DNA of 61,725 nucleotides from Paracoccaceae bacterium (GTDB lineage Bacteria > Pseudomonadota > Alphaproteobacteria > Rhodobacterales > Rhodobacteraceae). Both the position numbers and the translations under genes were made by a program. The DNA lies in assembly GCA_014879735.1 (NCBI GenBank), contig JACSRN010000037.1, positions 1 to 61,725 on the forward strand. Reading direction: 5' to 3'. Below the pieces are notes generated by a model. The model saw only the letters and a list, made by a program, of their open reading frames with translations, was not told the DNA's origin and ran no database searches. Shown here piece after piece: positions 13,699 to 21,218 of this stretch (position 1 is the first letter of the stretch; each line of letters begins with the position of its first letter).

Positions 13699-14619
13699 CT
13701 ATGCGTTGTCCGAAGATCCCGGGAAGCCGAGGGCCCCCAGATCGGTCGCGAACTTTGGCGCTGCGGCCTTGGCCGCCCGCAAATGCTGCCGCATCGCTTC
13801 GGCGGCACGCCCGCGATCCCCGACATCCAGCGCATCGAGGATCGCCACATGTTCCTGGCAGGAGCTGTTCAGCCGGCCCATATCGATCAGGGATTCATAT
13901 TCAAGCAACCGCCGCAGCTTGTTCTGCTGTGCAACGGCCTGCACCACAAAGCTGTTGTGCGAACATCCCGCGATGAAGAGGTGGAATTCCTCGTCGAGGC
14001 GAAAGAGTTCGGACAGGCTGTGCTGCTCGTCGCTCAGGATGCGCTCGTGGCGCGCGCGAATGGCCGCAGCACCGATGGCGTCATAGACGAAACTCGACTG
14101 CAGCATGGCGCCCGGCTCGACCAGGAACCGGAAGTCGTAGCTGGCGTCATTCGCGGCAAGCGAGTTCAGCGTCGGTTCGAACTGCCAGCCGTATCCCGGC
14201 ATGCGGGAGATGATGCCTTCGTCTGACAGGACCGAAAGGACGCGCGACAGCGTCATCTTGCCCAGCCCATAGCGCGAGCGAAAAGAATTCTCTGAAATTT
14301 CGCGCGGAATCCGGCCCTCGAACCAGTCCCGGGCAATACGCTCCCTGATCTGCTCTTCATCTTCAAGCGGCAGGCCGCCAAGTATGCGCTGCGCGGCGGC
14401 CGGGTCGACAGCGACGCTCATGCCGCGCCCGTCGGCACGATCCACGGCGCCCAGGCTGGCCAGCTGCGCCAGCGCCGCCCGCACCGGGCTGCGCGAGACC
14501 CCGAACTGTGATGACAGCTCGGTCTCTCGCAGATGATCGCCGGGTTTCAGCGATCCATCGACGATCAGTTTCAGGATCCGCCTGACCAGTCGCAGTTGAA
14601 GATCGCTCTTTGAATCCAC
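13699..14619 (-). CDS. GntR/FCD-type regulator with two winged-helix domains
   Basis: Regulator of 306 residues, clearly longer than the 220-250 usual for the FadR/FCD class. Residues 8-72 form a typical GntR winged helix (ETELSSQFGVSRSPVRAAL). A second winged-helix-like segment occupies about residues 88-150, with SENSFRSRYGLGKMTLSRVL followed by GIISRMPGYGW. The FCD ligand domain covers about 160-295 and keeps its Asp/His metal-site residues (DEEFH, QEH, RQH). It starts with GTG and has a weak ribosome site. It lies 45 bp behind the DMFase-like large subunit and is probably the last gene of the pot-dmf operon and its local repressor. The double domain arrangement is unusual. Confidence 0.85.
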   Translation of the reverse strand: MDSKSDLQLRLVRRILKLIVDGSLKPGDHLRETELSSQFGVSRSPVRAALAQLASLGAVDRADGRGMSVAVDPAAAQRILGGLPLEDEEQIRERIARDWFEGRIPREISENSFRSRYGLGKMTLSRVLSVLSDEGIISRMPGYGWQFEPTLNSLAANDASYDFRFLVEPGAMLQSSFVYDAIGAAAIRARHERILSDEQHSLSELFRLDEEFHLFIAGCSHNSFVVQAVAQQNKLRRLLEYESLIDMGRLNSSCQEHVAILDALDVGDRGRAAEAMRQHLRAAKAAAPKFATDLGALGFPGSSDNA

Positions 14620-14664
14620 GGGTCCAACTCGGCCTTGATTGTTCCGGTATCTGCCAGCGCTTTG

Positions 14665-20107: not shown

Positions 20108-20108
20108 G

Positions 20109-21218
20109 TCAGTCGTCCGCCACGGCGATCAGGTGGGCGGATTCCGCGGCATAGCCGATCCGGACTTCGGCGCCGGGCGCGATCTCGCGCTGGGCGTTGC
20201 GGTTGTCATGCGGGTGCAGCAGTATCACGGTGCGTCCGAAGCCCACGTCGGCATGAACCTGGATGGTCGAGCCGACAAAGACGGTCTCCTTGATCCGGCC
20301 CTGGATGACCGAGCCATCGCGGTCCGGCCCCTCTCCCGGCGCAAGGATCTTCAGATGCTCGGGCCGCAGGACAAGCCGCACCTGGTCCCCGATCTGGAAT
20401 CGATTTCCCGTTGCCCGCAACTGGCGCCCGTTGGCGGTTTCCAGTGTCACGCTCTCGCCGTTGCGGGCGGTGATGGTGCCGACGAACAGGTTCGACGTCC
20501 CGACGAAATTCGCGACGAACCCATTCGCCGGGCGGTCGTAGATTCCGGTCGGTGTATCCAGCTGCTGCAGCCTTCCCTGCGACAGGACGGCGATGCGGTC
20601 AGACATCGCCAGCGCCTCTTCCTGATCATGGGTGACGAAGACGAAGGTGATCCCGACGGCATGCTGCAGGGTCTTCAGCTCGATCTGCATGGCCTCGCGC
20701 ATCTTGCGGTCCAGCGCCGAGAGCGGCTCGTCCAGAAGCAGGACTTTCGGTTTCAGGACCAGCGAACGGGCCAGCGCGACACGTTGCTGTTGCCCACCCG
20801 AGAGCTGCGACGGGCGCCGCCCGCCGAACCCTGCAAGGCCGACAAGCTCCAGCGCCTCGCCCACGCGCCGGTCGCGCTCGGCCTTGGCCACCCCCGCGAC
20901 ATCCAGGCCATAGCCGACATTCTGGATCACCGTCATATGCGGAAAAAGCGCGTAATTCTGGAACACGGTATTGAACGGGCGCCGATGTGCCGGAACATCG
21001 CGCAGGCTTTTGCCGCCCAGGATCAGGTCGCCGCTGTCGAGATCCTCGAACCCCGCGATACATTTGAGCAGCGTGGTCTTGCCGCAGCCCGACGGCCCGA
21101 GAAGCGTGAGAAATTCGTTGTTCTTGACATCGATCGTCACGCCGTCAAGCGCCTTTACCGGCGGGCCTTCCGGGGTCTGATAGTGTTTGCTGGCAGAAAC
21201 GATCTGCAGAAAGTCCAT
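20109..21218 (-). CDS. Spermidine/putrescine-type ABC ATPase (PotA-like)
   Basis: ATPase of 369 residues. Walker A LGPSGCGKTT, Q-loop VFQNYALFPH, signature LSGGQQQR, Walker B LLLDEPLSALD and H-loop THDQEEAL are intact. A C-terminal TOBE domain (about residues 270-365) is typical of PotA/MalK/FbpC importers. A ribosome site (GGGGGAG) lies ahead of the ATG. It is the first gene of a seven-gene unit potABCD-dmf small-dmf large-gntR on the minus strand. A 23-bp palindrome lies 30-55 bp upstream of the start and is the likely control point. Confidence 0.92.
   Translation of the reverse strand: MDFLQIVSASKHYQTPEGPPVKALDGVTIDVKNNEFLTLLGPSGCGKTTLLKCIAGFEDLDSGDLILGGKSLRDVPAHRRPFNTVFQNYALFPHMTVIQNVGYGLDVAGVAKAERDRRVGEALELVGLAGFGGRRPSQLSGGQQQRVALARSLVLKPKVLLLDEPLSALDRKMREAMQIELKTLQHAVGITFVFVTHDQEEALAMSDRIAVLSQGRLQQLDTPTGIYDRPANGFVANFVGTSNLFVGTITARNGESVTLETANGRQLRATGNRFQIGDQVRLVLRPEHLKILAPGEGPDRDGSVIQGRIKETVFVGSTIQVHADVGFGRTVILLHPHDNRNAQREIAPGAEVRIGYAAESAHLIAVADD

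What the first reader, a model, noticed from the sequence alone, without database searches (positions are those of the whole stretch)
13699..21218. Dimethylformamidase-like enzyme inside a polyamine-importer operon
potA-B-C-D homologues, both DMFase-type subunits and a GntR regulator are consecutive on one strand with overlaps of potB/potC and dmf small/large (ATGA). Characterised DMFases are not, to my knowledge, tied to a spermidine/putrescine importer. The arrangement predicts that this branch hydrolyses a formylated or acylated amine brought in by the importer, making free amine plus formate or another acid.
Basis: partly seen in the sequence, partly recalled or inferred. Interest (0 to 1): 0.78.

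Follow-up and report, generated by a model that had tools for sequence, protein, structure and literature searches.

The report
DMFase-type amidase in amine-breakdown gene cluster
A bacterial iron enzyme related to solvent-degrading dimethylformamidase sits in a conserved gene cluster for importing and breaking down some amine, and its context suggests that it cuts a natural amine-bearing amide rather than the industrial solvent.

Summary
In detail: potA-B-C-D, both DMFase-type subunits and a GntR-FCD regulator run on one strand at 13699-21218. The pairing is not strain-specific: potABCD precedes dmfS-dmfL-gntR in 17 of 18 loci with a large subunit at least 70% identical, window included. The enzyme keeps the whole iron site but falls in a separate clade (SH-aLRT 100), outside DMFase and N-acetyl-beta-phenylalanine acylase, with two clade-specific acids (E419, D676). 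Importers with nearly the same altered PotD pocket occur beside a DmpA-like aminopeptidase with no DMFase gene alongside, and the two deeper DMFase relatives read keep an amine:pyruvate transaminase but not this importer. I read the locus as an importer-plus-peptidase front end feeding a transaminase/gamma-glutamyl-ligase/aldehyde-dehydrogenase core, in which the DMFase-type enzyme removes an acyl (perhaps gamma-glutamyl) group. Substrate and step are inferred, not shown.

The parts
13699..14619 (-). GntR/FCD-family regulator with a second GntR-type HTH stretch (about residues 91-144)
   Evidence: PF00392 (2 stretches) and PF07729; second stretch; follows dmfL in the clade loci
14665..16917 (-). 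large subunit of DMFase-type iron amidase; likely start at 16902
   Evidence: PF20254 299 bits; best PDB 8huy acylase 449 bits, DMFase 6lvb 425 bits; Fe ligands Y378, Y418, E503 and H501, N529 present
16914..17255 (-). small subunit of DMFase-type amidase
   Evidence: profile hit to 6lvb_B E 1.1e-4; model matches 6lvb_B, Foldseek E 5.9e-4
17311..18345 (-). PotD-like receptor with altered pocket (Y85H, W229Y, W255Y, D257E, Y293N, Q327F in E. coli PotD numbering)
18369..19205 (-). PotC-like permease
   Evidence: best NCBIfam model PotC 218 bits, below cut-off
19202..20107 (-). PotB-like permease, overlaps potC by 4 bases
   Evidence: best NCBIfam model PotB 224 bits, below cut-off
20109..21218 (-). 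PotA-like ATPase
   Evidence: TIGR01187 386 bits, above its cut-off of 355.6
21219..21661 (.). gap where 15 of 19 clade relatives carry a divergent DmpA-like (S58/P1) peptidase gene; no remnant found here
   Evidence: own-genome homologue (59%, cut by a contig end) elsewhere
21662..23035 (-). glutamine-synthetase-like gene, possible gamma-glutamyl-amine ligase
   Evidence: PF00120; 38-41% to annotated IpuC gamma-glutamylisopropylamide synthetases
23119..24489 (-). class III transaminase, probably amine:pyruvate (longest ORF starts at 24612)
   Evidence: PRK06105 541 bits, above its cut-off; best PDB hits 4grx, 5ztx, 4e3q, 3nui, about 665 bits; start
11314..12444 (-). HDAC-family amidohydrolase, possible alternative front end next door
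   Evidence: PF00850; best PDB HDAC-like amidohydrolases; just upstream of the dmf genes together with a Dpp-type importer in Roseobacter MED193 L044
12496..13467 (-). AraC-family regulator of the HDAC/Dpp neighbour
   Evidence: same order in L039, L045
9722..11317 (-). dipeptide/oligopeptide-type solute-binding protein of the HDAC neighbour
   Evidence: PF00496

Best explanation
A conserved amine-catabolism module, in part on plasmids. Shown by sequence: a PotABCD-type importer with an altered receptor, usually with a DmpA-like aminopeptidase, is linked to a class III transaminase and, in many loci, to a gamma-glutamyl-ligase-like GS and an aldehyde dehydrogenase, with a distinct clade of two-subunit DMFase-type iron amidase. 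Inferred: the importer brings in a cationic amide (such as an aminoacyl-amine) that the DmpA-like peptidase opens; the freed amine is glutamylated and/or transaminated to an aldehyde and oxidised; and the DMFase-type enzyme, using the 2-Tyr-1-Glu iron site, hydrolyses the remaining N-acyl bond of the intermediate, most likely a gamma-glutamyl or other acyl group on an omega-amino acid, the step that PuuD does in the classical route. It is not a DMF-degrading enzyme in nature.
For: Neighbours of 19 clade loci against 39 other DMFase-like loci: transaminase (38% or more) 17 vs 2; PotD of this type 16 vs 0; DmpA-like peptidase 15 vs 0; GS of at least 34% 12 vs 0. Two relatives at 49-51% lack the importer but keep the transaminase; one has GS-ALDH-dmfS-dmfL in a row. 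Some related GS-ALDH operons end in a class-I glutamine amidotransferase (PuuD superfamily), e.g. L191 and L192 and 7 of 40 GS loci examined, whereas none was found in 19 dmf-clade loci. Importers of the same pocket type are paired with a DmpA-like peptidase without a DMFase gene alongside. Roseobacter MED193 has dmf behind a Dpp/HDAC arrangement, and the best PotD match in its genome is 30%. Catalytic residues intact. E419 and D676 in 18 of 18 clade members, in 0 and 1 of 73 others.
Against: In six of the 19 clade loci no GS was found in the DNA held (L034, L036, L037, L040, L099, L136), so gamma-glutamylation is not universal. The own genome has other PuuD-superfamily enzymes (PF07722 best 199 bits; another class-I amidotransferase between two GS genes), so no PuuD gap has to be filled. 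Only 7 of 40 related GS loci showed a recognisable amidotransferase; divergent ones would be missed there and in the clade. In L135 the GS is only 34% identical to the window's. Characterised DMFase disfavours substitution at the acyl carbon (PMC7686228). An FGase-family gene in 7 of 19 loci could be the hydrolase instead. No substrate has been measured.
Confidence: 0.42

Rival explanations
1. One reading: the importer brings in an N-formyl- or N-acyl-amine and the DMFase-type enzyme hydrolyses it as the first intracellular step; the transaminase then handles the freed amine.
For: dmfS-dmfL directly follow potD in 17 of 18 loci at 70% or more; the receptor keeps all four acidic contacts of PotD as acids; clade-specific acids in the enzyme; a distant DMFase-like pair also follows an ABC operon with a solute-binding protein.
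Against: Importers of the same pocket type stand beside a DmpA-like peptidase without a DMFase gene; the two deeper DMFase relatives read lack this importer; MED193 has dmf without a close PotD.
Confidence: 0.3
2. Formyl chemistry: the pathway makes or takes up N-formyl compounds, and DMFase-type enzyme and FGase remove formyl groups at two places.
For: FGase-family gene in 7 of 19 clade loci, against 1 of 39 controls, Pfam-confirmed in two; characterised DMFase is a formamide hydrolase.
Against: 12 of 19 loci and the window show no FGase by the same search; the nearest solved relative is an N-acetyl acylase.
Confidence: 0.12
3. A true dimethylformamidase that happens to lie beside polyamine genes.
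For: Same family, two subunits and identical iron site.
Against: 37% identity to pAMI2 DmfA2, separate clade, gate residue F693 replaced by D676, conserved amine-catabolic context; none of the pathway genes annotated beside the pAMI2 enzyme.
Confidence: 0.05
4. The adjacency is hitch-hiking on mobile DNA without functional meaning.
For: Cluster is patchy (4 of 394 family genomes at 70% or more) and on plasmids in two cases.
Against: Order conserved across Rhizobiaceae and Rhodobacterales at 51-92% protein identity, co-varying distances, not seen in 39 control loci.
Confidence: 0.03

Closest known systems
N,N-dimethylformamidase DmfA1A2 (Paracoccus; PDB 6lvb; pAMI2)
   Same: Two subunits, small before large, same family, identical iron ligands Y/Y/E plus H and N
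   Different: 37% identity, other clade, gate F693 is D, residue after the second Tyr ligand is E not D; amine-catabolic neighbours not annotated beside pAMI2 dmf
N-acetyl-(R)-beta-phenylalanine acylase (PDB 8huy)
   Same: Best PDB sequence match over almost the full length, 449 bits
   Different: Other clade; N and S at the two clade-specific positions
E. coli Puu / gamma-glutamylation pathway
   Same: Polyamine-type importer or APC permease, GS-like ligase, ALDH, class III transaminase, DAO-type oxidase in several loci
   Different: No PuuD-type hydrolase found in 19 loci; GS far below the GGputSyn cut-off (184 vs 650 bits); DMFase-type amidase and DmpA-like peptidase added
E. coli PotABCD spermidine importer
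   Same: All four subunits, acidic receptor contacts conserved as acids
   Different: Aromatic box W229/W255 to Y/Y, Y85H, Q327F
DmpA/BapA aminopeptidases (S58/P1)
   Same: Peptidase next to the importer (Shinella lacus L035) is closest to DmpA 1b65, 416 bits
   Different: Substrate unknown here; in the window genome the homologue lies on another contig

Membership tests
DMFase-type (DMFA2_C) amidase family | PF20254 domain over its cut-off | tested here: met
   299 bits vs 27
DMFase-type (DMFA2_C) amidase family | 2-Tyr-1-Glu iron ligands and His/Asn | tested here: met
   Y378, Y418, E503, H501, N529; Y/Y/H/E in 92 of 92 rows, N in 90 of 92
DMFase-type (DMFA2_C) amidase family | Small subunit of the DMFase fold encoded just upstream | tested here: met
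N,N-dimethylformamidase (true DMFase) | Groups with characterised DMFase in a tree | tested here: not met
   separate clade, SH-aLRT 100, quick method without bootstrap
N,N-dimethylformamidase (true DMFase) | Substrate-gating Phe693 | tested here: not met
   aligned D676, 18 of 18 clade members
N,N-dimethylformamidase (true DMFase) | Hydrolyses DMF | not testable with these tools
   needs assay
N-acetyl-beta-phenylalanine acylase | Groups with 8huy | tested here: not met
Spermidine/putrescine PotABCD | Over the curated cut-offs of Pot equivalogs/subfamily | tested here: inconclusive
   PotA passes TIGR01187; PotB, PotC and PotD below
Spermidine/putrescine PotABCD | PotD ligand contacts | tested here: inconclusive
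   acids and W34/Y37 kept, W229, W255, Y85, Q327 changed (contacts from passages of PMC11414716 and PMC8666671)
Puu gamma-glutamylation pathway | PuuD-type gamma-glutamyl hydrolase in the cluster | tested here: not met
   none found in 19 loci by tblastn with three amidotransferase queries at 30% or more, none in the window; a divergent one could be missed
Puu gamma-glutamylation pathway | gamma-glutamylputrescine synthetase over cut-off | tested here: not met
   GGputSyn 184 bits vs 650

The most novel reading that the evidence does not exclude
A third specificity of the 2-Tyr-1-Glu iron amidases: an N-acyl (gamma-glutamyl) amine hydrolase standing in for PuuD in a pathway that lives on aminoacyl-amines, which are taken up by a re-tuned Pot importer and opened by a DmpA-like peptidase. 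This would also give the DmpA/BapA family a natural role as the intracellular partner of a dedicated importer.
Probability: 0.25. Interest if true: 0.72.

Novelty: new variant of a known kind. Interest (0 to 1): 0.5.

Why it matters
DMFase-type enzymes are annotated after an industrial solvent, yet 61 of 385 class-level genomes hold a strong relative, so natural substrates must exist. This locus gives a testable natural pathway for one clade, names its partner enzymes, and shows a re-tuned polyamine-type importer tied to DmpA-like aminopeptidases, whose natural role I recall as open.

Tried and rejected
PuuD gap filling as a necessity: rejected, because the own genome has other PuuD-superfamily enzymes; kept only as a role for this cluster. 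Free polyamine import as certain: rejected after the pocket comparison. HDAC neighbour as acetylpolyamine amidohydrolase: not supported, its best PDB matches are general HDAC-like amidohydrolases (up to 379 bits), acetylpolyamine aminohydrolase 3men has 129 bits (best 60 of 137 shown). A histamine/carcinine route (transaminase, ALDH, FGase, beta-aminopeptidase) was considered from memory; nothing specific was seen in the genes read, no dedicated search was made, and it was left open. Promoter scan: six promoter-like sites where shuffles give 2.0 (sd 1.5); three of them, on the - strand at 24880-24977, lie upstream of the transaminase, none lies in the gap upstream of potA; terminator-like sites were fewer than in shuffles. 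Paper searches for the acylase, gamma-glutamylation in roseobacters, carnosine use with a polyamine transporter, a peptidase-importer link and PotD contacts by residue name gave nothing useful; one search found no paper with both 'dimethylformamidase' and 'polyamine'. The library holds open-licence papers only, so absence there is weak. Rows dropped: in the tree the duplicate L002 and the partial rows L074 and L076; rows identical over residues 100-600 and repeat fetches of one record were merged (L033 into L041, L039 into L045 among others). L036/L037 and L035/L042 are close pairs, so the 18 loci are about 14 independent ones.

Full report
What is there. On the - strand the window holds potA (20109-21218), potB (19202-20107), potC (18369-19205), potD (17311-18345), a 113-residue protein (16914-17255), a DMFase-type large subunit (14665-16917) and a GntR-FCD regulator (13699-14619). 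Family scans confirm the roles: PF20254 at 299 bits for the large subunit, PotA above the TIGR01187 cut-off, the permeases and receptor closest to spermidine/putrescine models but under the equivalog cut-offs. The small protein has no direct hit, but a profile of 12 homologues reaches the DMFase small subunit at E 1.1e-4, and an AlphaFold model (mean pLDDT 77) matches 6lvb_B first in the PDB with Foldseek E 5.9e-4. The ATGA overlap of the two dmf genes is doubtful: most relatives align from the ATG at 16902, preceded by AAGGA, and L133, L134 and L136 are annotated with gaps; but L135 and the true DMFase of pAMI2 are annotated with overlaps of 8 and 4 bases.

Beyond the finding's edges. Directly upstream on the same strand lie a glutamine-synthetase-like gene (21662-23035) and a class III transaminase (23119-24489). 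The transaminase is closest in the PDB to a group of transaminases at about 665 bits (4grx, 5ztx, 4e3q, 3nui; two of these are named pyruvate transaminase; that the group includes the well-known Vibrio fluvialis and Paracoccus enzymes is recalled). The GS-like protein is not a putrescine ligase by NCBIfam (184 bits against a cut-off of 650) and is 38-41% identical to annotated IpuC proteins. Downstream lie an AraC regulator, an HDAC-family amidohydrolase and an oligopeptide-type receptor.

Is the pairing conserved? A collection scan gave 14 loci with 71-83% identity to the large subunit. Plasmids added Pseudorhizobium flavum and Rhodobacteraceae M382, and the family search added G386; G228 and G200 are the Ruegeria spongiae and M382 records again, judged from contig lengths and coordinates. 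With the window that is 18 loci. potABCD stands directly before dmfS-dmfL-gntR in 17; the exception is Roseobacter MED193 (L044), where dmfS-dmfL-gntR follow an araC-HDAC-Dpp set and whose genome gave one PotD match, at 30%. The window, L039 and L045 carry both arrangements side by side. Pairwise distances of potA-D, dmfS, gntR, transaminase, GS and DmpA-like peptidase follow those of the large subunit (Spearman 0.75-0.94), as expected for a unit inherited or transferred together. It is rare: 4 of 394 family genomes have a relative of 70% or more.

Control. The same neighbour search over 19 clade loci (window not counted) and 39 other DMFase-like loci gave: transaminase (38% or more) 17 of 19 against 2 of 39; GS (34% or more) 12 of 19 against 0 of 39 (1 of 39 at 28%); DmpA-like S58 peptidase 15 of 19 against 0 of 39; PotD of this type 16 of 19 against 0 of 39; FGase 7 of 19 against 1 of 39; class-I amidotransferase 0 of 19 against 1 of 39; any potA+B+C set within 9 kb 16 of 19 against 5 of 39. 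So Pot-type transporters do appear near some distant DMFase-like genes, but the full module marks this clade.

Enzyme. All residues that PMC7686228 (read: parts 1 and 2 of 3 of the text) names as iron ligands or essential are present: Y378, Y418, E503, H501, N529; across 92 rows Y/Y/H/E are invariant and N holds in 90. In a tree of 89 rows the 18 module-linked proteins lie on one side of a branch with SH-aLRT 100 (quick method, no bootstrap), outside both DMFase (pAMI2) and the acylase 8huy. E419, next to an iron ligand, is E in 18 of 18 and in 0 of 73 others; D676, aligned with the substrate-gating Phe693 of DMFase, is D in 18 of 18 and in 1 of 73 others. Two added acids fit an amine-bearing substrate; that is inference. 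In P. aminophilus a second, pAMI5-borne pair was not found linked to DMF use (PMC4543880, passages), so family membership does not imply DMF.

Importer. PotD contacts taken from PMC11414716 and PMC8666671 (passages): the acids at 36, 168, 171 and 257 stay acidic and W34/Y37 stay, but W229 and W255 become Y, Y85 H, Y293 N and Q327 F in 15 of 15 receptors. Twelve family genomes carry receptors of 51-59% identity with nearly the same pocket (position 229 Y in six and F in six; one has W at 85). In 11 of these 12 loci the gene set is potD-A-B-C plus a DmpA-like peptidase and no dmf gene; the twelfth (L184) is cut by its contig end. One of the twelve genomes (G215) does hold a more distant DMFase-like gene elsewhere. 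Four of four plasmid relatives read (of 32 records with a match) show the same set with a MurR/RpiR regulator. The importer type therefore goes with the peptidase, and its cargo is best guessed as a cationic amide with a free amine that a DmpA-like enzyme can open; DmpA and BapA are reported to split carnosine (PMC9235088, passages).

Core. The two deeper DMFase relatives read (49-51%; a third at 50%, H4, was not read) have no such importer. Rhizobium CB3171 has APC permease, FGase, transaminase, GS, ALDH, dmfS, dmfL, DAO; Burkholderia vietnamiensis G4 has APC, transaminase, an amino-acid ABC system, dmfS, dmfL, DAO, alanine racemase. Alanine racemase plus DAO would recycle the alanine made by a pyruvate-dependent transaminase (inference). 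Some related GS-ALDH operons end in a class-I glutamine amidotransferase; of 40 GS loci examined (40 of the 64 genomes other than the own one that matched) 7 have one, 20 show the ALDH and none has dmfL, while no amidotransferase was found in the dmf clade (0 of 19). PuuD is the gamma-glutamyl-GABA hydrolase of the classical route (PMC9397018, passages). This suggests, but does not prove, that the DMFase-type enzyme fills the hydrolase slot. Against it: in six of the 19 loci no GS was found in the DNA held, other PuuD-superfamily enzymes exist in the own genome, and an FGase is a competing hydrolase in 7 of 19 loci.

Verdict. The most likely role is amide cleavage inside an amine-catabolic core fed by exchangeable importers; direct cleavage of the imported compound is the main rival. 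The class of enzyme is known, its specificity and context are a new variant.

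Noticed in passing
L178-L183, L185-L189; plasmids L193-L196: Gene set of potD, potABC and a DmpA-like P1 peptidase without dmf genes (annotated RpiR-type regulator beside it in the plasmids): an importer apparently dedicated to a DmpA-like aminopeptidase.
   Followed up: partly
window 13699-14619: GntR-FCD regulator with a second GntR-type HTH stretch; two stretches also scored in L136, only one in L133 and L134.
   Followed up: partly
L140 4900-11214: Distant DMFase-like pair on a Roseomonas marmotae plasmid directly after an ABC operon with an extracellular solute-binding protein.
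   Followed up: no
window 11314-12444 and L191 7886-9016: HDAC-family amidohydrolase, 52% identical between the two; near dmf in four loci of the clade (window, L039, L044, L045) and near GS-ALDH-amidotransferase in Burkholderia vietnamiensis.
   Followed up: partly
L138 8505-13328: Paracoccus aminophilus pAMI5 DMFase-like pair next to a gene annotated as dioxygenase and an AmiS/UreI-type channel.
   Followed up: no
L039 and L045 about 4400-5620: DmpA-like peptidase gene matched in two pieces, probably interrupted; the two records share near-identical DNA although named Defluviimonas and Niveispirillum (MAG).
   Followed up: no
window 25104-25868: Asp/Glu/hydantoin racemase family protein upstream of the transaminase; not seen in the clade loci by tblastn.
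   Followed up: partly
window 24880-24977: Three promoter-like sites on the - strand upstream of the transaminase, in a region with more such sites than shuffles give.
   Followed up: no
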